Part shown: in pieces, positions 33,698 to 45,696 of the stretch
Layout: each line of letters opens with the position of its first letter
Numbering within the stretch: the first letter of the stretch is position 1
Origin: Bacteroidales bacterium
Lineage (GTDB): Bacteria > Bacteroidota > Bacteroidia > Bacteroidales > Muribaculaceae
DNA: 46,675 nucleotides
Assembly (NCBI GenBank): GCA_910575615.1
Contig: CAJTEX010000023.1
Coordinates: forward strand, 1-46,675
Reading direction: 5' to 3'
Position numbers and translations under genes: made by a program
Notes under the pieces: model-generated
What the model was told of the DNA's origin: nothing
The model's database searches: none
What the model saw: only the letters and a program-made list of their open reading frames with translations

Positions 33698-35989
33698 ATG
33701 AAATTACGCGCTGTCCTCACCAACGCAGTCACATTGATGATTCTGCTGTCGTCTAACCTTGCCGGAGCTGAAACCATAAGCCACGCCGAGGCAATGTCAA
33801 AAGCTTATGCTGCTATCACACGCCATCAGAGTGATTCGCGCCGTGTTCCCTCATCCTCTCTTCTCAAACTGAGCTATGATGCCGGTAGCTATTACATTTT
33901 CAATTCCGAGAGAGGAGGATGGGCTGTGGTGGCTGCGGACAATCGTGTGCCGCAGGCTGTGCTGGCCTACTCCCCATCCGGGTCTTTCGATATAGACAAT
34001 GTGCCTGCAACCGTCAGGAGCCTCCTTGACGGTTATGCAGGTGAGATTGATGCTCTCGACACCCGGGAGTATGTCATTGCCCCCAAACGTGCGTCGGGCC
34101 GCAGTGTCGCGCCACTTCTTGGAGAGACTGCCTGGGCGCAGGGTGACCCGTTCAACCGTATGTGTCCTGTCATTGACGGCCAAAGATGTGTCACAGGGTG
34201 TGTCAACACCGCCATAAGCCAGATAATGTATCACCACCGTCACCCTGCTGTCGGTCGGGGATCGCATAGCTATCAGTACAACGAAGGCACCTTGTCCGCA
34301 GATTTTTCCAAGTCTGTCTACCAATGGGATTTGATGAAGCCCGTTTACTACGGCAGCGACAGCGAGGAGTCGAAGGATGCCGTAGCGTTGCTTATGAGGG
34401 ATTGCGGCATCGCCAATTCGTCGAACTATGGCACTTGGGAGACAGGCGCATCACTGAATTTGGCCGGACTTGTCGAATATTTCGGTTATGACAGAAGTGT
34501 GAGAAGTCTTGACCGTAACAACTGCACACGCGAGTATTACGAAGAGACGATGCGCTCCGAGCTTGACGCGGGACGCCCTGTCGAGTATGAAGGTGGTAGT
34601 CCGAATGGCGCACATGCGTTTGTCTGTGACGGGTATGACAGCGAGGGGTATTTCCACTTCAATTTCGGGTGGGGACCCGGTTCGACCGGCTATTATCTGA
34701 CCTCCGCCACCGGTTTTGATTCCTCTCCCGGAATACATTATTCAATTATGCCCGATGTCGGCAATCCGCCGGCTATAACCGCAGGTTCGTCGAAAGACTT
34801 TTCATGGGAAAATGGCGACCGCATAGGCTGTTCAATTGATTGCCTGGTTGCCTGCGGCGAGCCTTCGACAATCGAGGTTGGACTGGAGGTGTGCGACAAA
34901 GCGACCGATGAGGTGTCGTATCTCATAAAGTATACCTATCCCAATATGAGTGGCGTTTACATCGGGGAATTTATTTTCGATGACGCTGTGGCCGACGGCG
35001 ATTACCGCCTGAGGGCTGTTTGCCGTGTAAACGGAGGTGAATGGGTGCGAGCTACCTTCGGCGACATGCGTGTCAGCTATGTCGATGTCAATGTCAGCGG
35101 AGGAAGAAAAACTTATACCGACGAGGTCATAGAGGATGATATGGACCCCGGAGTGGTACGCATCGACGGTGTTTATTACCGGTTGGATGGAGACAGGGCA
35201 GTCGTCACCAGCCGAAACGCCCGTAAAGCGAGCTACTCAGGCAATGTCATCATCCCGGACAAAGTGAACTACCAGGGACGCACAATGATTGTCGATGAGA
35301 TAGGTGAAAGCTCTTTCGCGGAGAGTCAGGTCAGCAGCGTGGTGGTCGGGCGGAATGTCAAGACCATAGCTTTCGGCTCATTCGACTTCACTACCATTGG
35401 AAGCCTGATTTTCGAACAGCCGTCCGCTCTGCGCGAGATAGGCGGCTGGGGCTTCAACGCTTGCAAAATCGACGTGGTGGAATTGCCTGAGGGGCTTGAA
35501 TCCATAGCCACCTGCGCTTTTCAATCGACATCGATGACAAAGCTTAAGTTGCCCTCAAGCTTAAGATTCATCTCCAACTCCGCTTTCAATTACAGCACTC
35601 AATTGCGGGATGTGTATGTCCGATGGAATGATGTCGCGTCACTGCCGACACTTGGCAATGGTGTGTTTGATGGATGTGAGAAATCCCAAATCAATCTGCA
35701 TGTGCCTGTAGGTAGCGCTTCAATATATGCCGCCGAACCTCAATGGAATGAACTCAATATAATAGAAGATGCTGATTCGGGTGTCGAAGAGATTGCAGGA
35801 GACTGGTTGGAAATTATGGCGGCCAACGGTCGTATCGTCATCACCGGACTCCCTGTCGGCACTGTCGCCACCGTTTATGGCCTCAGTGGTATGGCAGTCG
35901 CGACAACTGTTGACGGCGAGGTGGATGGGCTCAACCACGGAGTGTATATCGTGAAAGCCGGTTCGACTGTGGCAAAGGTTGTCTTATGA
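33698..35989 (+). CDS. Exported C10 (streptopain-family) cysteine protease with leucine-rich repeats
   Basis: The 763-residue protein has a signal peptide (residues 1-24) and an inhibitory propeptide of the C10 type (about 27-130). The protease domain follows, with Cys168 in RCVTGCVNTAISQIM and His306 in GAHAFVCDGY, then FHFNFGWGPGSTGYY. Relatives are streptopain (SpeB) and the Bacteroides bfp proteases. A beta-rich linker leads to BspA-type repeats (about 510-660; VIPDKV, IGESSFAES, ALREIGGWGFNAC, LPEGLESIATCAF). The tail (NGRIVITGLPVGTVATVYG, ending GVYIVKAGSTVAKVVL) resembles a type IX sorting domain. It is probably a surface or secreted protease cutting host or dietary protein. The gene is more AT-rich than the genes around it. 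Confidence 0.92.
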   Translation: MKLRAVLTNAVTLMILLSSNLAGAETISHAEAMSKAYAAITRHQSDSRRVPSSSLLKLSYDAGSYYIFNSERGGWAVVAADNRVPQAVLAYSPSGSFDIDNVPATVRSLLDGYAGEIDALDTREYVIAPKRASGRSVAPLLGETAWAQGDPFNRMCPVIDGQRCVTGCVNTAISQIMYHHRHPAVGRGSHSYQYNEGTLSADFSKSVYQWDLMKPVYYGSDSEESKDAVALLMRDCGIANSSNYGTWETGASLNLAGLVEYFGYDRSVRSLDRNNCTREYYEETMRSELDAGRPVEYEGGSPNGAHAFVCDGYDSEGYFHFNFGWGPGSTGYYLTSATGFDSSPGIHYSIMPDVGNPPAITAGSSKDFSWENGDRIGCSIDCLVACGEPSTIEVGLEVCDKATDEVSYLIKYTYPNMSGVYIGEFIFDDAVADGDYRLRAVCRVNGGEWVRATFGDMRVSYVDVNVSGGRKTYTDEVIEDDMDPGVVRIDGVYYRLDGDRAVVTSRNARKASYSGNVIIPDKVNYQGRTMIVDEIGESSFAESQVSSVVVGRNVKTIAFGSFDFTTIGSLIFEQPSALREIGGWGFNACKIDVVELPEGLESIATCAFQSTSMTKLKLPSSLRFISNSAFNYSTQLRDVYVRWNDVASLPTLGNGVFDGCEKSQINLHVPVGSASIYAAEPQWNELNIIEDADSGVEEIAGDWLEIMAANGRIVITGLPVGTVATVYGLSGMAVATTVDGEVDGLNHGVYIVKAGSTVAKVVL

Positions 35990-38131: not shown

Positions 38132-40303
38132 TCAGGCGTAGGAGTGAAGTCCGGAAAGGAGATGATTGACCCCGAAATAGGTCATCAGCACAGACAGGAA
38201 GGCCAGGAGCAGGTAGAGACACAGCACACGAGGACGGCGCAACAGGGGAAACGAGGAGCCATGGAGCGGGAAGGCATACACCAGCAAAGTGACCAGTGCC
38301 CAGGTCTCCTTGGGATCCCACCCCCAGTAGCGTCCCCACGACTGGTTGGCCCACACCGCCCCGACGAAAATCCCGGCGGCAAGCAGAAACACCCCGGGAT
38401 AAAGCAACAGGGCGCAGAGACGCGCCACAGCCGAGCCTCTCGGGGTTGATGCCCCCACACCTAGGGCCACACCTGACAGGATGGCGATGGCCGCCAGCAA
38501 CGCGTAGGAGGCCATCACAAGCAGCACATGGATGGAGAGCAACGGGGAGGCAAGCACCGGCATCAGATGAGACACCGTGGCCCCGCCTCTGCCCATCATC
38601 GCCACAAGCAGCGACAGGCCGCCGACGGCAAGGGAGGCATATGCCGCGGGGCCAAACCTCCGGGCCTGGAAGAAACCCACGGCGGCCCCGATCGACAGCC
38701 ACCCCATCAGCAACATGGTCTCGTAGCCGTTTGACAAGGGGACATGCCCTCCGACATACCACCTCAACCCCATCAGCATACTCACCCACACAAACAGGCC
38801 CACAGTCAGAAGAAAGCAGGCACGCCGGCACCTTGAAGAAGGCAGAAAACCGGCGACTGCCAGCATAAGAGCCACGAGGCCGGGCCATAGGGGGCTGCCA
38901 TAACGGTTGTAGAGGAGTTCAGCCTCAATACGCGAGGCCGACGGGAGCGTGACTCCCGGGATGGAAGACTGGAAATCCCGCAACCGGGAAATCTCATCAT
39001 CAGCATTTTTCCATTGCCTGGCCGCCACCTCGCGCGAGATGCGGTCAAGCACCGTGGTCATGAATATGTAGTCCTCCCCGTCAATGTCGGCTGGGGGACG
39101 GTCGGCGAATGACAGCCATTCGACAGGCCCGTCGTGAGAGACGGCCACAGGAAAAACCCTGAAGGCAGACCCCGTGCAGACCATCGTCACCAACGCCACC
39201 TGCGAGTCGGTGTCGCGTAGCTTTCGGTCGGCAAGGTCGTCGGCCACCGCGTGTTCAAGCCTGTAACCACGAGTGGTGTAGAAATCCTTTATCGAGGCAT
39301 ATCCCCCTCCGTCAACCCCGAGCAACCGTGAGGCCTCCTCACCCTCGACCTTAATGAACGGTTCATTCTTCCAGGAATCATAATAAAAGAGCCATCCCGC
39401 GACCACCTGCTCGGCGGTCAGACCACGGTAAGATGTGGAACCATTGACTTTCAGGCAGAAGTCACGCGCCATTGTCTGCAGCGGCATCACCCGGTCGCCC
39501 CAGTAGACATACACCTTGCCGAGGCGGGCAGCCAAAGCCCGGGGGACAGTCTGCGGCGGTGGCGCGGATACTGCCGCCGAGGCGGTTTCCGAGAACAGAA
39601 GCAAAAGCAACGGGGCGGAGCGGCGCAACAGCTGACGGAACCGGCTTTTGTGCGACATGAAGAATCCTGTCATCGACAACACCAATGATATGTAACCGGC
39701 GTAAGTCACCCCTATCCCCCAGGGATCATACGATACCGAGAGGGTCGAACTGTCAGGGGCAAGCGATGTCTGATAGAAACGGTAGCCCCGCAGCTCGAGT
39801 ATGTTGTTCATCGACAGCCGGCGGCGCGACTGGGCGGCAGACCCATCATTGACCACCACCACCGAGGCGTAATCCATCGGCGACGATGTGCCGGGATAAT
39901 ATTCAATCTCTGAATGGTCGAGCGACAGCGAGAACGGCAACGGCTCATGGCCCCCCTCGTCAAGGGTGAAACCGTCAGCCGGAGGCTCGCCACACACCAG
40001 GGTGACCTTCCCCTGCTTCCCCCAGACGTAGGTGATTCCCGCGCCGGCGAGAATCAGCAAGAGCGACAGATGCAGCCCCATTGTCGCCACGGACATGCCA
40101 CGCCTGCGGGCCAGCAGCCACGCGAGCGAGCAAGCCGCGGAGACCGCCCAGAGGGCGATCATCCACGGCGAATGATATATGGCGGTGAACGCCGCCTCGC
40201 TCCCGGCCAGCCGCTCGACCACGGTCGCCGTCATAAGCGAGAGGGTCAGGAAGCCGGCCGAGCCAAACGCGAGATTGCGTAGTGTATGGCTGTCGGTCAT
40301 CAC
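38132..40303 (-). CDS. System II cytochrome c biogenesis protein, ResB-CcsA fusion
   Basis: The 723-residue membrane protein combines a ResB-like N-terminal half (membrane segments near residues 12-85, and a periplasmic domain with FSLSLDHSEIEYYPG and NILELRGYRFYQTSLAPD) with a CcsA C-terminal half. The CcsA half carries the tryptophan-rich heme-handling loop WGRYWGWDPKETWAL, and histidines in SIHVLLVMASY and HGSSFP. Such fusions carry heme across the membrane and attach it to CxxCH cytochromes. It is the last gene of the porin/imelysin/di-heme operon, starting 6 bases after the di-heme gene. The start may be the second Met (40300). Confidence 0.92.
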   Translation of the reverse strand: MMTDSHTLRNLAFGSAGFLTLSLMTATVVERLAGSEAAFTAIYHSPWMIALWAVSAACSLAWLLARRRGMSVATMGLHLSLLLILAGAGITYVWGKQGKVTLVCGEPPADGFTLDEGGHEPLPFSLSLDHSEIEYYPGTSSPMDYASVVVVNDGSAAQSRRRLSMNNILELRGYRFYQTSLAPDSSTLSVSYDPWGIGVTYAGYISLVLSMTGFFMSHKSRFRQLLRRSAPLLLLLFSETASAAVSAPPPQTVPRALAARLGKVYVYWGDRVMPLQTMARDFCLKVNGSTSYRGLTAEQVVAGWLFYYDSWKNEPFIKVEGEEASRLLGVDGGGYASIKDFYTTRGYRLEHAVADDLADRKLRDTDSQVALVTMVCTGSAFRVFPVAVSHDGPVEWLSFADRPPADIDGEDYIFMTTVLDRISREVAARQWKNADDEISRLRDFQSSIPGVTLPSASRIEAELLYNRYGSPLWPGLVALMLAVAGFLPSSRCRRACFLLTVGLFVWVSMLMGLRWYVGGHVPLSNGYETMLLMGWLSIGAAVGFFQARRFGPAAYASLAVGGLSLLVAMMGRGGATVSHLMPVLASPLLSIHVLLVMASYALLAAIAILSGVALGVGASTPRGSAVARLCALLLYPGVFLLAAGIFVGAVWANQSWGRYWGWDPKETWALVTLLVYAFPLHGSSFPLLRRPRVLCLYLLLAFLSVLMTYFGVNHLLSGLHSYA

Positions 40304-40309
40304 GGAGAA

Positions 40310-41941
40310 TCAGATAGCGTCAAGGAAGGTTATCACCGCGTCGCGGTCAGCCTTGGACAGCTGGCGGAACCGCTCCACCGAGTAGCGGGCATCGCTCCGG
40401 GGGGAAACTCCATGCCACATCACAGCCTCCATGGTGGTGCGGGCGCGGCAGTCGTGGAGACGGTCGGCGGTGGCCGAACCGGTCACGCGCTGATGCAGTC
40501 CGCGTCCCCAGAGCGGGGTGGTGCGGCACCATCCGGTGCGGATGTCATTGGTCATATGCAGCTTGTGCTGCACCATGTCGGTGTAGGGCCAGATGGTCTG
40601 GTAGGGGTAACGCGGCAACTCGTTCCCGGCGAAGAAACGCGCCGGGTCGCGCACATTGTCGGCCCCTGTCTTCCAGGATGGACGGTGGCAGTAGGCGCAG
40701 CCGATTTCCTCGAAAATCTCCTTACCACGGGCCACATCCGGATTGTCGATGTCGCGGACAGCCGGCACAGCCAGTCCTCGGTGCCACACCATCAGGTCGG
40801 TGTACTCGTCGTCGGTCATCTCCACATCAAGATTCCTGGAGTTGAGATAAGCCAGGATGCGGGTCTCGATGTCGCCGTTCCACCACTCGGGATGGTTGCG
40901 CCCCGGGTCGACCGTGGCGAGATAGTCGTCAAAACCGGCCTGCACGGCAGGGTCTTTGGCCGAATACGCGGCCCATGTGCCTGCCCCGTCGAGATAATGG
41001 TAACGGCGGTCAGAACGGGTGACATTGGTGATGTTCCAGATGGCGTTGGCCCCGGCGGCATCCTGGAGAGGGCCGCGCGAGAGGGCGTAGGTGAAACGGC
41101 GCGGATAGGGGGTGCCGTCACCCTGGAGCGAGTTGGAATACTGGCTCGTCCACTGCCCGTCGGCGAAGAAAGCCGGGTTGAGGCCATTGGGGAGCAGCCC
41201 GTCAGCCTCCTCCTGGCGGTACTGGGCGAGCAGGTCAGCATCGTCGATGGCATCGAGCAGTCCGGTGCCGTATATGCCGATTGTGCTTTCGAGCTTCACC
41301 TCATACGCCTCGGGCAGCTGGTAGCCCTGGCGCACCACATATATCGCGTCGGAGGGCATGGTCACCTCGGGATATTGCAGCTCATAGGTCTCCCCGTCGG
41401 GGAAACGGTTGCCCCAGTCGTCGGTCTGGGCCAGCCATTTCACCTGTATCTTGTTCTCGTCGACCGGAGCCGAGAAGGGGGCCACGGCATGGCTCTGCGG
41501 CATGCCGGCGAGCCAGCTGACATACCCCTCGGTCTGGGGATTGTAGACCACCAGCAGGCATCCGTTGCCTATCTGGTCGGTCTTGAAGGCTCCGGCCTCC
41601 ACCCGTTTGCCATGGCTGTAGCCGGGGTGGCAATGCATGCATGACGTGCGGATATAGACAGGGCCGAGACCCGACCTGACACCGCTCGCGTTGGACATGA
41701 ACGGCTTCTCGAAAATGGCCTCGCCATTCTTGAAACTCTGGTATAGGCCCGCCTCCTCGACAGCCGGGGAGGGCTGTTCGAGGGCATTGGAGGTGGTCAG
41801 GAAAGCGGTGCCGAGTTCCCCGCCCGAATAATACCACTGGGGGAAAACGCGGTCTGTGGGTTCCTCGTTGCGTATCGGCTCGTCATCCGAGCAGGAGACA
41901 AGCAGCAGCGAGGCGGCAACGGGCAGAATCAGTTTTCTCAT
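40310..41941 (-). CDS. Di-heme oxidoreductase lipoprotein (DUF1111/DHOR family)
   Basis: The 543-residue protein has a lipoprotein signal (LLLVSCSDD, lipid Cys17) and two CxxCH heme sites: Cys101-Met-His-Cys-His105 and Cys415-Ala-Tyr-Cys-His419. PLWGRG and a late Met-rich segment (MEAVMWHG) are typical of the DHOR fold, which is related to the MauG/CcpA di-heme peroxidases. It should act on the periplasmic side of the outer or inner membrane. It lies 6 bases after the imelysin gene and 6 bases before the cytochrome assembly gene. Its electron partner is unknown. Confidence 0.92.
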   Translation of the reverse strand: MRKLILPVAASLLLVSCSDDEPIRNEEPTDRVFPQWYYSGGELGTAFLTTSNALEQPSPAVEEAGLYQSFKNGEAIFEKPFMSNASGVRSGLGPVYIRTSCMHCHPGYSHGKRVEAGAFKTDQIGNGCLLVVYNPQTEGYVSWLAGMPQSHAVAPFSAPVDENKIQVKWLAQTDDWGNRFPDGETYELQYPEVTMPSDAIYVVRQGYQLPEAYEVKLESTIGIYGTGLLDAIDDADLLAQYRQEEADGLLPNGLNPAFFADGQWTSQYSNSLQGDGTPYPRRFTYALSRGPLQDAAGANAIWNITNVTRSDRRYHYLDGAGTWAAYSAKDPAVQAGFDDYLATVDPGRNHPEWWNGDIETRILAYLNSRNLDVEMTDDEYTDLMVWHRGLAVPAVRDIDNPDVARGKEIFEEIGCAYCHRPSWKTGADNVRDPARFFAGNELPRYPYQTIWPYTDMVQHKLHMTNDIRTGWCRTTPLWGRGLHQRVTGSATADRLHDCRARTTMEAVMWHGVSPRSDARYSVERFRQLSKADRDAVITFLDAI

Positions 41942-41947
41942 AAATGT

Positions 41948-43108
41948 TTATTGCTTGGAGAGTTCGGAATAGACCTTTTCAAGGGTGGCCACAAGGTTGT
42001 CGCCCACCACTTCGACGGCGTTGGCGGCTTCAGCACCGGCGGCATTGAGGGCGAACGGTTCGGGGATGGCGGCGATGGCCGAGATGGCATTGTCTATCGC
42101 GGCGCGCATCTCTGAGTCGAGCGCGGGGTTGACACTGCGGACATAGTCGGAGATTGAAGCGTCACCGGCCACAGAGCCGCAATATGAGTTCTTTATCGAG
42201 CGGATATTGTCCTGGAAGTCCTCGATGGAGTTGAGGCTGTAAGGCGACTCGATATAGTTGCGGTCGTCAAGCGAGCTGCCGTTGTGGGGACGACCGATTT
42301 TGGTGTTGCCAACCTCGTCGGCGATGTCGATGCACCCCTGGATGATTTCCTCGGCCACCTCCTGGTAGGTCTTGTAAATCGAACCGGCCTGTCCGGCGTT
42401 GGCCATCATCCATCCGTGGTCCTTACCCTTGTCGAGGTCGGCCTCGTCGAGGATATCCTGTTTCTCGGAAGAGATGTTGGGAGTCCCGGCCCAGCAGGCC
42501 TCAAGACACACACACTGGTTGCGGAGGTCTTCGGCCACCATCAGCAGGTATGTGATTTCCTCGGGGGTGTAATTGAGGGAGTGATAATTTGAGGTACGCC
42601 CGTCGGCCGAAAGCTCGAAGAGCATGTACTCGATGGAGTGGAATCCGAGCAGTCCGTAGCCGAAGTTATTGTCAAGGGTCAGCTCCGCCCCTTTGCGCAG
42701 CTCGGCCAGCAGCCTGTCCATGGCGGCCTTGTCGAGAGGCCAGGAGTCGATATGCGGGTCGATGTTGTAATCTGCGGCAGGGCCGAAGAGAAATGCCTCA
42801 GACAGCTCCCAGTAGCGGCGCGACTCCTTCCAGGCATTGGCGGCGGCGGCGATGTCGGCGGTGGTCAGGGCCCCGGCGGCATGGTGCTGGCTGATAATCT
42901 CGCAGTTGTCATACAGCTCGATGGCAGCATCGGCCATGCCCTTGTAGGTGGGAAGCACGGTATGGCTCACATATGCCTGTGCGGCACTCTTGAGCATGGT
43001 CTCCTTGGTTGATTCCTCCGGTTCGCCGGGGGTGTTATCAGAGCATGACACGGCAGCCAGTCCGAAGAAAAAGAGGGAGAGCGACTTTAGGGTGTTCTTG
43101 ATGTTCAT
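41948..43108 (-). CDS. Imelysin (M75) family lipoprotein
   Basis: The 386-residue protein has a lipoprotein signal (FFFGLAAVSCSDN, lipid Cys22) and two helical repeats. The first contains the imelysin GxHxxE motif as Gly155-Phe-His157-Ser-Ile-Glu160 (GFHSIEYMLF). Members include IrpA and relatives of the EfeO iron-binding protein; no peptidase activity is established. A role in metal or heme uptake is inferred. It starts 39 bases after the porin gene and is followed 6 bases later by the di-heme gene. Confidence 0.92.
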   Translation of the reverse strand: MNIKNTLKSLSLFFFGLAAVSCSDNTPGEPEESTKETMLKSAAQAYVSHTVLPTYKGMADAAIELYDNCEIISQHHAAGALTTADIAAAANAWKESRRYWELSEAFLFGPAADYNIDPHIDSWPLDKAAMDRLLAELRKGAELTLDNNFGYGLLGFHSIEYMLFELSADGRTSNYHSLNYTPEEITYLLMVAEDLRNQCVCLEACWAGTPNISSEKQDILDEADLDKGKDHGWMMANAGQAGSIYKTYQEVAEEIIQGCIDIADEVGNTKIGRPHNGSSLDDRNYIESPYSLNSIEDFQDNIRSIKNSYCGSVAGDASISDYVRSVNPALDSEMRAAIDNAISAIAAIPEPFALNAAGAEAANAVEVVGDNLVATLEKVYSELSKQ

Positions 43109-43147
43109 ATGTCTTTTGTTTTAAAATTTCTGCATCATGTCGGGCAA

Positions 43148-44467
43148 TCAAAGGAACCAGCCTGAATAGGCCACGCCGAGGGAGATTGAAGGCTCGTTGT
43201 TGTATTTTCGGTCAAGCAGCCCCACGGCATATTCCCCCTTGATGACCACCTGGGGGATGGGATAGTAGTTGAGTCCGACGGCGACACGCTGGCGGGCGCA
43301 CCAGTCGTAATCGAGGTCGCCACCCTGCATCTTGTACATGGAGTCATAGTAGTCGTAACGGCCGAAGAGGTAGAGACGCTGGTTGGCGGCGCGTAGCCTG
43401 GGCGACAGGGAGAAGAAATCATATCCGGCCTCGATGCCCGTCGCGATCGCGTCGGAGGCCACTCTCTGTTTTTTTGACGGCGACTTGCTCGGCATGTTCA
43501 TATTGAAGGATGAGATATGTTTTGAGTCGCTCAGATGACCGTAATCGAAGTGGCCCCGGGCGAGGAAGCCGAATCCCTCATAACGGAAATCGAAGGTGCC
43601 GATAGTCACGGTGCCATGCACGCCGTCATTCTTCTCGCTGGCGGTGGGGGCCATGGTGTTGCGGAAGGAATTGCCGACATATCCCGCCACCGACAGCCTC
43701 AACCCCTTGACCGAGGTGTTGTCGACACGAAACGCCCCGGCGTAGCTGTTGGCAATCTTGTATTCATAAGGCGAGGCCGATCCGTCATGGATCCAGCCCT
43801 GCGAACCAAACCGCTCGCTGTCGAGGCCGGGCATGAACATCAGCTCGTAACGCCAGTCGCCGGCCTTTCCCCAGAGGGAGATGCCGATTTCATGCCAGGT
43901 GCAGGGCATTATGGTGTTCTCCCCTTCGGGGCGGTAGACCCCGAAGAACTCGGTCGGCATATGGTGGGAGTTGGTCTGCCCCACAGGGACAACCATCATA
44001 CCGGCCCTCACGTTAAGCTGGGGCATGAATGACTTCTGAATCCAGAACTGCTCGAGGGCGACCTCGCCGCCGCGCTCGACCTCGCTCTCATACTCGCCCC
44101 CCTCCTCATTCTCAAACTCGACGGCCGACTCGGTGCCGCCATGCTCGAATTCAATTTCCGAACTCATCGACCATCCTTTGCCGAAGTCATAGCCGATGAA
44201 AATCACCGCGTGGGGGATATCGAAACGCCCGTTGCTGCGCGCGTCGCGGTAATTCTCGGGAGAGACATAGCGGAGATAGCTGTCACTGTAAAAGTTGCGG
44301 GTCATGGCCACCTCGCCGTAACCTCCCACATGGAGGCGGCTGGTCCAGGAGCTTTTTGATTTTGAAGAAGAGGCCACACTGTCAGCCTCCTCGGGATGAG
44401 CCGAGGCGGCCGGGAGGCAAGCCATTGACAAGGAGAGGATTGCGGTCAACGCGAAATGTCTGGTCAT
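43148..44467 (-). CDS. Outer-membrane porin-like beta-barrel protein
   Basis: The 439-residue protein has a signal peptide (residues 1-23, LTAILSLSMACLPAASA). It has alternating beta-strand segments ending in an aromatic C terminus (SLGVAYSGWFL), as expected for a beta-barrel. HVGGYGEVAMTRNF and AGMMVVPVGQTNSHHMPTEF resemble phosphate-selective or general porins of Bacteroidetes. An acidic loop (about residues 113-127, EFENEEGGEYESEVE) could bind cations. The start at 44467 is set by the promoter at 44500-44531. It leads the operon. Confidence 0.88.
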   Translation of the reverse strand: MTRHFALTAILSLSMACLPAASAHPEEADSVASSSKSKSSWTSRLHVGGYGEVAMTRNFYSDSYLRYVSPENYRDARSNGRFDIPHAVIFIGYDFGKGWSMSSEIEFEHGGTESAVEFENEEGGEYESEVERGGEVALEQFWIQKSFMPQLNVRAGMMVVPVGQTNSHHMPTEFFGVYRPEGENTIMPCTWHEIGISLWGKAGDWRYELMFMPGLDSERFGSQGWIHDGSASPYEYKIANSYAGAFRVDNTSVKGLRLSVAGYVGNSFRNTMAPTASEKNDGVHGTVTIGTFDFRYEGFGFLARGHFDYGHLSDSKHISSFNMNMPSKSPSKKQRVASDAIATGIEAGYDFFSLSPRLRAANQRLYLFGRYDYYDSMYKMQGGDLDYDWCARQRVAVGLNYYPIPQVVIKGEYAVGLLDRKYNNEPSISLGVAYSGWFL

Positions 44468-44499
44468 AATATTCCTTTGCAAACTGTGAAAATGTGTTG

Positions 44500-44531
44500 C
44501 AAAGTTACCTGTATCTGTTAACGTCCGCAAT
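44500..44531 (-). promoter_or_regulatory. Promoter of the porin/imelysin operon
   Basis: ATTG (44528-44531), 20 bases, TAACTTTG (44500-44507) on the minus strand, 32 bases before the porin ATG. Confidence 0.72.
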
Positions 44532-44663
44532 CCTCAAAATCGGGTAATTTTCACCAACCTTAACTCCCGGCCTCCATACCCCCAATACCAACTTTTGATT
44601 ATTTTAACCATTAATTACGGCCATTTCACCCTTGATTGCACAGCAGAGTATCCGGATTTTGGC

Positions 44664-44691: not shown

Positions 44692-45696
44692 ATGAAAAGA
44701 TTCAATCCGATGAGAATATGCCTGCTCCCGGTGATGGGAGCGTTGCTGGGATGCGCATGCTCCAAGTCTGGAAAGGATGTCAAGGAAGAGGCCGACACCG
44801 CCGTCACTCCACCGCTGCAGACCGCCTCAGCTGGTGACATCGACCGGTATCGCATCTACTCGCCTGAGATGGGCGACACTGTCACCATTGATGTCTGGAC
44901 TCCCGAGGGTTATCCCGGCGATGACGGCCACCGGTATCCTGTGATATACATGCATGACGGCCAGAACCTCTTCGACGCGTCGACCACATGGAACGGCCAG
45001 TCGTGGGAGATGGACTCTGTCGTCTCGGAGCTTGTGGCAGCTGGCGAAATCGAGGCCCCGGTAATAATCGGCATACACAGTGTGGCCGAGACTCGCGTGG
45101 GCGACCTGATGCCCCAGAAGGCCAAGGATTACATCACCTCCACCCCCGACTCGGTATTGCGCGACTTCCTGGAGAAGACCCCGCTGAGAGGGGATGCCTA
45201 CGCGGCTTTCATTGTCAACACGCTGCGTCCGGCGATGGACGCGGCATACCGGCTGACTGCCAATGCCGACTCCACTTTCGTGATGGGGTCGAGCATGGGC
45301 GGCCTGATGTCGGTCTATGCGATGTCGGAATATCCCGATGTGTTCGGCGGGGCCGGATGCCTCTCCACCCATTGGGTGGGCACACTCGACGGCGACCCGA
45401 CTTTCGCCAACGCCATGTATGATTACCTGTCGGAGCATATGCCGCGCGACGGCCGCCACCGTCTATATTTCGACCACGGGACGGAGTCCATCGACAGCCT
45501 TTATGGACCGGCAAACGAACGCGTGGTGGCGCTGGCCAGGTCGCTGGGCTACAGCGAGCGCCCGGCTGACGGCACACGCCCGACTCTCGACAATTATGTC
45601 GCCGAGGGAGCGGGCCACGAGGAACGTTTCTGGGCGGCTCGTGTGAAACGCCCCCTGCGCTTCCTTTTGGGCAAGAAGCAGGCAGAGGGCGAGTGA
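44692..45696 (+). CDS. Esterase-family lipoprotein (alpha/beta hydrolase, esterase D-like)
   Basis: The protein has 334 residues from 44692 and a lipoprotein signal (PVMGALLGCACSK). It shows the esterase D/enterochelin esterase pattern: YPVIYMHDGQNLFD near the front, the nucleophile elbow GSSMGGLMSVY, an Asp region, and the late catalytic His in EGAGHEERFW. Substrates in the family range from feruloyl esters to siderophores; here it cannot be fixed. It diverges from the porin operon and lies next to an imelysin system, so a siderophore link is possible but unproven. Confidence 0.88.
   Translation: MKRFNPMRICLLPVMGALLGCACSKSGKDVKEEADTAVTPPLQTASAGDIDRYRIYSPEMGDTVTIDVWTPEGYPGDDGHRYPVIYMHDGQNLFDASTTWNGQSWEMDSVVSELVAAGEIEAPVIIGIHSVAETRVGDLMPQKAKDYITSTPDSVLRDFLEKTPLRGDAYAAFIVNTLRPAMDAAYRLTANADSTFVMGSSMGGLMSVYAMSEYPDVFGGAGCLSTHWVGTLDGDPTFANAMYDYLSEHMPRDGRHRLYFDHGTESIDSLYGPANERVVALARSLGYSERPADGTRPTLDNYVAEGAGHEERFWAARVKRPLRFLLGKKQAEGE

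What the first reader, a model, noticed from the sequence alone, without database searches (positions are those of the whole stretch)
38132..44531. Self-contained operon: porin, imelysin, di-heme oxidoreductase and its own cytochrome c assembly protein
Four minus-strand genes with 39, 6 and 6 bases between them share one consensus promoter. They encode an outer-membrane barrel with an acidic loop, an imelysin lipoprotein with a GxHxxE metal motif, a lipoprotein with two CxxCH sites, and a ResB-CcsA fusion that could attach heme to it. Imelysins are linked to iron uptake, and DHOR proteins are di-heme redox enzymes. Together this suggests an envelope module in which heme-dependent electron transfer is coupled to capture or oxidation state change of a metal. 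The dedicated assembly gene implies the operon can mature its own cytochrome. The order of events is inference; the gene order and motifs are visible.
Basis: partly seen in the sequence, partly recalled or inferred. Interest (0 to 1): 0.72.

Follow-up and report, generated by a model that had tools for sequence, protein, structure and literature searches.

The report
Gut-bacterial iron-starvation envelope heme operon
Four neighbouring genes in a gut bacterium make an outer-membrane pore, a metal-site protein, a two-heme enzyme and the factor that installs the hemes; they stay together across many related bacteria and look like an iron-scavenging unit switched on when iron is scarce.

Summary
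In detail: four minus-strand genes (gaps 39, 6, 6 bases) behind one Bacteroidales-type promoter. In 198 genomes of the window's family, 66 carry the di-heme gene (DHOR); all 60 whose contigs reach far enough have the order barrel-imelysin-DHOR-CcsA. Two diverged versions exist, never seen together: one has a circularly permuted imelysin and up to three extra genes; the other, as here, is compact with a canonical imelysin. The assembly gene is the only CcsA found in this 99.75%-complete genome, and three cytochrome-c family searches gave no other convincing cytochrome. I add a palindromic operator overlapping the -33 box, a porin-like barrel with invariant glutamates, and a DHOR model that aligns with di-heme peroxidases, MauG and MbnH. 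The locus kind is in print: Bacteroides thetaiotaomicron BT2473-82 rises about 63-324-fold in low iron (PMC10434189); imelysin-DUF1111 operons were described in 2011 (PMC3143127). Iron binding, the redox step and the electron source are not shown. Best reading: an iron-starvation outer-envelope iron-acquisition unit. Boldest open reading: DHOR oxidises a tryptophan of the imelysin to build its metal site.

The parts
44579..44608 (.). second operator-like palindrome (18.4 bits on -, 17.3 bits on +)
   Evidence: PWM scan of the window; 36 of 114 upstream regions hold two or more sites above 12 bits
44524..44549 (-). operator, AATTACC-N8-AGGATTG type, overlapping the -33 box (24.5 bits, best site in the window)
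   Evidence: EM on 114 upstream regions; motif at one fixed distance (17 bp) from TAnnTTTG in 83 of 114; coordinates; specificity
44500..44530 (-). promoter: -33 TTG, 20 bp, -7 TAACTTTG
43148..44467 (-). outer-membrane porin-like barrel, 439 aa
   Evidence: no Pfam hit; AlphaFold2 pLDDT 86.1, pTM 0.83; Foldseek to VhChip, PorB, OmpU, OprP, best E 6.2e-13
44051..44158 (-). acidic segment of the barrel (residues 104-139): 11 glutamates invariant across both operon types
   Evidence: alignment A3, 23 sequences of both types; 9 of the 11 invariant in A4, 60 sequences
41948..43108 (-). imelysin lipoprotein, canonical (unpermuted) topology, 386 aa
   Evidence: PF09375; 4ecg E 1.7e-34 in one stretch, permuted 3n8u E 2e-35 in two swapped stretches
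42629..42646 (-). GxHxxE motif (GFHSIE)
   Evidence: motif present in 138 of 138 imelysins longer than 340 aa
40310..41941 (-). di-heme oxidoreductase (DHOR, DUF1111) lipoprotein, 543 aa
41627..41641 (-). first heme site CMHCH
   Evidence: C, C, H invariant in 61 of 61 rows of A5
40685..40699 (-). second heme site CAYCH
   Evidence: C, C, H invariant in 61 of 61 rows of A5
38132..40303 (-). ResB-CcsA fusion, system II cytochrome c assembly, 723 aa (GTG start; an ATG follows three bases on)
   Evidence: PF05140 and PF01578; sole PF01578 match in the genome
38306..38338 (-). WWD-type heme-handling motif WGRYWGWDPKE
   Evidence: sequence; motif name recalled, from no call

Best explanation
An iron-starvation outer-envelope iron-acquisition unit, transcribed from one promoter under a palindromic operator. 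ResB-CcsA moves heme across the inner membrane and attaches two hemes to DHOR. DHOR and the imelysin are lipoproteins, probably surface-facing, and act as a pair: the imelysin holds iron, or a small iron ligand, in the pocket between its two helical bundles, and DHOR does one-electron chemistry on that metal or ligand so that it can be taken up. The glutamate-rich barrel lets the released cation into the periplasm, from where an ordinary inner-membrane transporter takes over. Shown here: gene content, order, conservation, promoter and operator-like motif, heme motifs, predicted fold, exclusive assembly gene. Taken from print: strong induction by low iron of the B. thetaiotaomicron counterpart. 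Inferred: metal identity, redox direction, surface location, passage through the barrel.
For: Order barrel-imelysin-DHOR-CcsA in 60 of 60 uncut loci out of 66 family loci and, in a scan biased to close DHORs, in 56 of 65 named loci with enough flank. The order survives DHOR divergence to 27-29% identity and circular permutation of the imelysin. Of the site residues listed by Xu et al., those corresponding to Arg302, Glu306, Glu309, Asp322, Asp326, His368, Glu371, Glu111, Lys116, Glu137, Asp147 and Asn151 are invariant in 138 of 138 imelysins of both topologies (list from PMC3143127; correspondence by my alignment and spacing). CcsA in 65 of 66 DHOR+ and 26 of 132 DHOR- genomes. Conserved promoter and operator-like motif. 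Acidic barrel segment with invariant Glu. Acidic residues right after the lipobox Cys in most imelysins and DHORs. BT2473-82 up 62.7-323.7-fold in low iron and also up in colitis (PMC10434189, passages).
Against: PIBO (permuted B. ovatus imelysin) showed no zinc, ferric or heme binding in thermofluor (PMC3143127). The residue corresponding to PIBO Ser141, also on the Xu et al. list, is Ser in only 108 of 138 and Ala in 30. No inner-membrane permease and no electron donor in the compact operon. The operator was not found at two other places tested in this genome (flavodoxin gene, hemerythrin-LuxR regulator gene), so a shared iron-responsive operator is not shown. Iron regulation of the window's own operon is untested. 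In 6 of 72 named loci with enough downstream sequence no CcsA lies directly behind DHOR on the same strand (L167, L175, L184, L203, L211, L212; in a seventh, L170, a second DHOR intervenes).
Confidence: 0.6

Rival explanations
1. Maturation pair. DHOR works like MbnH or CorB/SACCP: a MauG-type di-heme enzyme oxidises a conserved tryptophan of the co-transcribed imelysin (for example to kynurenine), and only the modified protein binds the metal. The oxidant is peroxide or another acceptor, so no electron donor is needed.
Against: No modified residue has been seen; bCcP proper scores as high as or higher than MauG; conserved Trp can be structural; in M. alcaliphilum a knock-out of the CorB equivalent grew better, which argues against an essential role there (PMC3912023); gut conditions are mostly anoxic.
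Confidence: 0.12
2. Peroxide defence. DHOR is a bacterial di-heme peroxidase protecting the envelope when iron scarcity and inflammation coincide; the imelysin only withholds iron.
Against: Strict pairing with imelysin and barrel; strong induction by iron limitation; no electron donor in the compact operon.
Confidence: 0.13
3. CcsA is a general cytochrome assembly gene that happens to sit here.
For: CcsA without DHOR in 26 of 132 DHOR- genomes: 10 beside ORFs with 3-4 CxxCH, 7 paired with a RidA-like gene.
Against: Only CcsA hit in this genome, no NrfA hit, no PF00034 hit but DHOR, and only five sub-cut-off PF13442 matches that I judge chance; 61 of 66 DHOR+ genomes have exactly one PF01578 match.
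Confidence: 0.07
4. The unit handles something other than iron, for example a polysaccharide or another metal, and the iron control has another reason.
For: Imelysin-fold Algp7 binds alginate (quoted in PMC3143127); PIBO did not bind Fe(III).
Against: Iron repression of imelysin operons in other phyla (PMC3143127); a heme enzyme made more, not less, in low iron argues for an iron purpose.
Confidence: 0.08

Closest known systems
B. thetaiotaomicron BT2473-BT2482 iron-starvation locus (PMC10434189)
   Same: CcsA, porin, thiol oxidoreductase (DHOR), peptidase M75 (imelysin) in one locus strongly induced by low iron
   Different: By annotation it matches the longer, permuted-imelysin version, with porin, hypothetical genes and a HTH regulator; the window has the compact version. 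Sequences were not compared directly.
PA4370-PA4373 / VC1264-VC1266 Fur-regulated imelysin operons (PMC3143127)
   Same: imelysin beside a DUF1111 di-heme protein, outer-membrane side, no permease
   Different: two imelysin-like proteins there; no ResB-CcsA or acidic barrel mentioned in the passages I saw; Fur control not shown here
EfeUOB/M
   Same: imelysin (M75) domain next to a heme enzyme, iron-linked
   Different: no EfeU permease in the operon; EfeB is called DyP in PMC3577903 (start of abstract in a listing) although PMC3143127 calls it DUF1111
CorA-CorB and MopE-SACCP (PMC3912023); MbnP-MbnH (recalled)
   Same: metal-repressed pair of surface metal-binding protein and di-heme bCcP/MauG-like partner
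   Different: copper not iron; unrelated binding protein; modification not tested here
Permuted imelysin PIBO (3n8u) and 4ecg, 'putative iron-regulated protein A'
   Same: same family and nearly all site residues
   Different: window protein is unpermuted like 4ecg; PIBO belongs with the other operon version (E 1.7e-139 to the L045 imelysin)

Membership tests
Imelysin (PF09375, IrpA/PIBO family) | Pfam match over cut-off and GxHxxE | tested here: met
   163 bits vs 23.5; GFHSIE
Imelysin (PF09375, IrpA/PIBO family) | site residues around the motif listed by Xu et al. | tested here: met
   12 of the 13 listed positions invariant in 138 of 138; the Ser141 position is Ser in 108 and Ala in 30 (Ser in the window); list from PMC3143127
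Imelysin (PF09375, IrpA/PIBO family) | binds iron | not testable with these tools
   published thermofluor test on PIBO negative (PMC3143127)
DHOR / DUF1111 (PF06537) | Pfam match over cut-off and two CxxCH | tested here: met
   129.9 bits vs 22, middle of the profile not matched; two CxxCH in 64 of 66 family loci, one in the other 2
bCcP/MauG superfamily | shared di-heme fold | tested here: met
bCcP/MauG superfamily | distal heme ligand type and peroxidase or Trp-oxidising activity | not testable with these tools
   His459 and His510 invariant in both types, roles unknown
System II cytochrome c biogenesis (ResB-CcsA) | ResB and CcsA domains with WWD motif | tested here: met
   TIGR03144 matched below its cut-off, 137.5 vs 187.6
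EfeUOB | EfeU/Ftr1 permease in the operon | tested here: not met
   no such gene among the four
Porin_O_P (PF07396) | Pfam match | tested here: not met
   window barrel has no Pfam hit at E up to 0.1; the second porin of the long version, tested in L045, does match
BT2473-82 type locus | sequence orthology to the B. thetaiotaomicron genes | not tested
   only the published annotation was compared

The most novel reading that the evidence does not exclude
The imelysin is a protein whose metal site must be built after secretion: DHOR, a MauG/MbnH-fold enzyme made with its private assembly factor, oxidises an invariant tryptophan at the imelysin's domain interface, and only this modified imelysin binds iron. 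That would explain why a recombinant imelysin failed to bind the metals tested, why imelysin and DHOR are inseparable across permutation and deep divergence, and why the compact operon needs no electron donor.
Probability: 0.1. Interest if true: 0.88.

Novelty: new variant of a known kind. Interest (0 to 1): 0.52.

Why it matters
How imelysins and DUF1111 di-heme proteins work was open in 2011 (PMC3143127), and I found no later answer in my searches. This compact version holds both with a single assembly gene, in a genome where no other convincing c-type cytochrome was found, so heme loading, redox chemistry and metal binding can be dissected by removing one gene at a time. The operator-like motif gives a handle on iron control in Bacteroidales, whose mechanisms the authors of PMC10434189 call scarcely known. 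The same locus kind is strongly induced in colitis, so it bears on how gut commensals live through inflammation.

Tried and rejected
Fur-type or global iron operator: not supported. In this genome only the window matches operator plus promoter with fewer than 2 mismatches (26 matches with up to 3 against 17 for the reversed control), and the flavodoxin gene and the genome's own hemerythrin-LuxR regulator gene have no good site around them (best 4.6 and 5.7 bits).

Hemerythrin-LuxR regulator as the dedicated partner: only suggestive. It sits divergently within 800 bp of the barrel in 14 of 74 named and 5 of 62 family loci that have a barrel (some loci are in both sets), but 179 of 198 family genomes have a relative, so presence carries no signal. 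This genome has one elsewhere (C4:113482). Of five such regulator genes away from the operon that I scanned (G000, G063, G097, G166, G086), one, in G086, has a 16.2-bit site 37 bp before its likely start; the other four do not.

Count of CxxCH by DNA pattern: 369 matches against 144 control, only the first 100 listed; dropped in favour of family searches. Five PF13442 matches below the cut-off lie in frames of 261, 90, 413, 108 and 125 aa; I judged them chance by eye, with no signal-peptide program.

Foldseek on the DHOR model gave nothing useful (best E 0.69); the fold call rests on VIA-align. By sequence DHOR has no solved relative but a cytochrome c555 stretch; the barrel has none.

Distal heme ligand: I suspect His510 where bCcP has Met, from a recalled motif; not tested.

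Type A and type B never in one genome (19 and 47 of 198; 4.5 overlaps expected, hypergeometric P 0.004), without correction for relatedness. Two genomes (G082, G112) have a further weak PF06537 match under the cut-off, set aside.
Full report
Observation. Pfam supports imelysin, DHOR, ResB and CcsA. The barrel has no Pfam family, but its AlphaFold2 model (60 sequences, pLDDT 86.1, pTM 0.83) matches general porins with Foldseek E down to 6.2e-13 at about 10% identity. Only one promoter-like match lies on this strand between 37,900 and 44,700.

Conservation. In 198 genomes of the window's family (drawn evenly by the tool, unnamed, the window's own included) 66 have DHOR. I took all 66 loci (the window) and classified ORFs with profiles grown from the window proteins. 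59 have barrel-imelysin-DHOR-CcsA on one strand, one more has it with CcsA split in two frames, and 6 lack one or two end genes because the contig stops there. The genome-contig scan gave 80 named loci, the best of at least 592 and so biased towards this DHOR; by title nearly all are Bacteroidales or near it (Muribaculaceae, Bacteroides gallinarum, Porphyromonas uenonis, Prevotella, Alistipes, Paludibacteraceae). Of 70 with at least 3.5 kb upstream, 68 have imelysin and barrel; of 72 with at least 3 kb downstream, 65 have CcsA next; all four in 56 of 65 with both. The exceptions: no CcsA found in L203, L211, L212; CcsA on the other strand in L175, L184; a split CcsA far off in L167; a second DHOR before CcsA in L170; in L173 the barrel was found only 6.5 kb off and in L189 not at all.

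Two versions. 19 family loci (type A) have DHORs with Pfam E about 1e-52 to 1e-58, and 47 (type B, window) about 1e-24 to 1e-31. Window DHOR shares 27-29% identity with the 4 type A rows and 51-68% with the type B rows of alignment A1. All 19 type A imelysins have the motif at the C-terminus (circularly permuted); the 119 others examined (44 family loci and 75 named, with some overlap between the sets) are canonical. A type A imelysin (L045) matches the permuted B. ovatus structure 3n8u over its length (E 1.7e-139), while the window imelysin matches it in two swapped stretches and 4ecg in one. Between DHOR and CcsA type A carries a second porin (19 of 19 loci), a one-CxxCH lipoprotein (16) and a RidA-like gene (18); Pfam, run on L045 only, gives Porin_O_P, nothing and PF01042. 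That resembles the gene list printed for B. thetaiotaomicron BT2473-82 (PMC10434189, passages); I did not compare those sequences. No genome holds both types (hypergeometric P 0.004 without correction for relatedness).

Assembly gene. PF01578 has one match in the window's genome, the operon's own. NrfA (PF02335) has none at E up to 1, PF13442 none over cut-off, and PF00034 only the DHOR site. Across the family CcsA is in 65 of 66 DHOR+ genomes (in the other, G004, it is cut by the contig end) and in 26 of 132 DHOR- genomes (Fisher P 1.3e-29, uncorrected for relatedness). In those 26, ten have split CcsB/CcsA beside ORFs with 3-4 CxxCH, seven a RidA-like gene next to CcsA, one the right part of a type A operon at a contig start, and eight are fragments, unpaired or not confirmed by my profile. 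So CcsA mostly goes with a cytochrome; here the only one found is DHOR.

DHOR fold. The model (61 sequences, pLDDT 91.1) found no Foldseek match, but VIA-align over 995 chains gave hydrazine synthase 14.8, YhjA 14.6, di-heme peroxidases 14.3 and lower, MauG-like 6e1c 13.9, MauG about 12.0-12.7, then a drop to 3.7. The heme motifs, His459 and His510 are invariant across both types. The enzyme is thus predicted to be of the di-heme peroxidase/MauG build with large insertions; activity is unknown.

Imelysin and barrel. After rotating the permuted proteins, 12 of the 13 residues that Xu et al. list at the domain-interface pocket correspond to positions invariant in 138 of 138 imelysins longer than 340 aa (four shorter ORFs left out); the thirteenth, their Ser141, is Ser in 108 and Ala in 30. 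Trp123 and Trp206 are invariant too (PMC3143127, passages). The barrel holds 11 glutamates invariant in 23 of 23 sequences of both types within residues 104-139, 9 of them invariant in a further set of 60. In the model residues 110-125 have pLDDT below 50, so their place is uncertain. Many imelysins and DHORs have acidic residues right after the lipobox cysteine (two or more of five in 88 of 124 and 91 of 131 with a recognised lipobox, out of 142 and 149 ORFs), which from recalled work on Bacteroidetes suggests surface export. BT2479, the B. theta M75 protein, was seen in culture supernatant and its mutant kept EspB protease activity (PMC6282197, passage); its signal peptide was used to secrete cargo (PMC13192842, passages).

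Control. In 114 distinct upstream regions TAnnTTTG occurs in 104 (shuffles 19.5) and TTG-N18-22-TAnnTTTG in 72 (2.5). EM found a palindromic motif, consensus ATTTACCnAnTTTTGGGTATTG, at one fixed distance from the -7 box in 83 of 114. At 18 bits it marks 58 sites in 40 kb of operon promoter windows and 8 in 1.31 Mb elsewhere, with a site in 50 of 73 named loci; part of these loci trained the matrix. A matrix from 52 family loci scores 48 of 62 named loci above the shuffled 99th percentile, though its sites were picked with the full matrix. The window has two sites. Overlap with the -33 box fits a repressor, or an activator of LuxR type (recalled). A hemerythrin-LuxR regulator is divergent and within 800 bp in 14 of 74 named and 5 of 62 family loci; in the two tested by Pfam the LuxR domain is over the cut-off in both and hemerythrin in one. 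By description it resembles CdhR and BT0519-20, themselves induced by low iron (PMC10434189). Which protein binds is open.

Function. My literature searches listed no paper that, by title and start of abstract, tests what imelysin plus DHOR do in Bacteroidales; this covers only the open-licence library, and figure 8 of PMC3143127, which draws imelysin gene contexts, is not held. Induction by low iron, iron-linked imelysins in other phyla and the acidic barrel make iron acquisition most likely (0.6). The copper pair CorA-CorB (PMC3912023, passages) suggests the bolder reading, that DHOR matures the imelysin by oxidising a tryptophan.

Verdict. Observation confirmed; interpretation partly supported; a compact variant of a known, iron-regulated locus kind, with features (two versions with permuted and canonical imelysin, operator-like motif, sole assembly gene) that I did not see described in the passages read.

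Noticed in passing
L106:1725-6047 (genome G181, same genus): A hydrazine-synthase-alpha-like (PF18582, E 3.3e-36) protein with two CxxCH and a MauG-like protein with a beta-propeller stretch stand before a RidA-like gene and a ResB-CcsA fusion: a different cytochrome set using the same assembly gene kind.
   Followed up: partly
L045:11124-12332; L104, L111, L117, L120, L123, L126: A RidA-like gene (PF01042 in L045) is paired with CcsA also in DHOR- genomes where no ORF with two or more CxxCH was seen near by; its link to cytochrome assembly is unexplained.
   Followed up: partly
window 44692-45693 (+): Divergent neighbour is a putative lipoprotein of the PF00756 esterase family with weak similarity to enterochelin esterase; among the family loci a homologue was clustered only in L084.
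   Followed up: partly
L170:6603-8234 and L190:5493-7160: A second, diverged DHOR behind the first in Porphyromonas uenonis, and in front of the operon in a roe-deer duodenum Bacteroidales assembly.
   Followed up: no
L245:6879-6904 (genome G086): An operator-like site of 16.2 bits lies 37 bp before a hemerythrin-LuxR regulator gene away from the operon, a hint of autoregulation; four other such genes lack it.
   Followed up: partly
window 33698-35989 (+): C10-family peptidase with Spi inhibitor domain and BspA-type leucine-rich repeats.
   Followed up: no
L133 record title: The closest named locus is titled 'Staphylococcus sp.' although its genes are of Bacteroidales kind: probably a mislabelled metagenome assembly.
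   Followed up: no
PMC3143127 versus PMC3577903: EfeB is called a DUF1111 di-heme protein in one paper and a DyP peroxidase in the abstract of the other.
   Followed up: no
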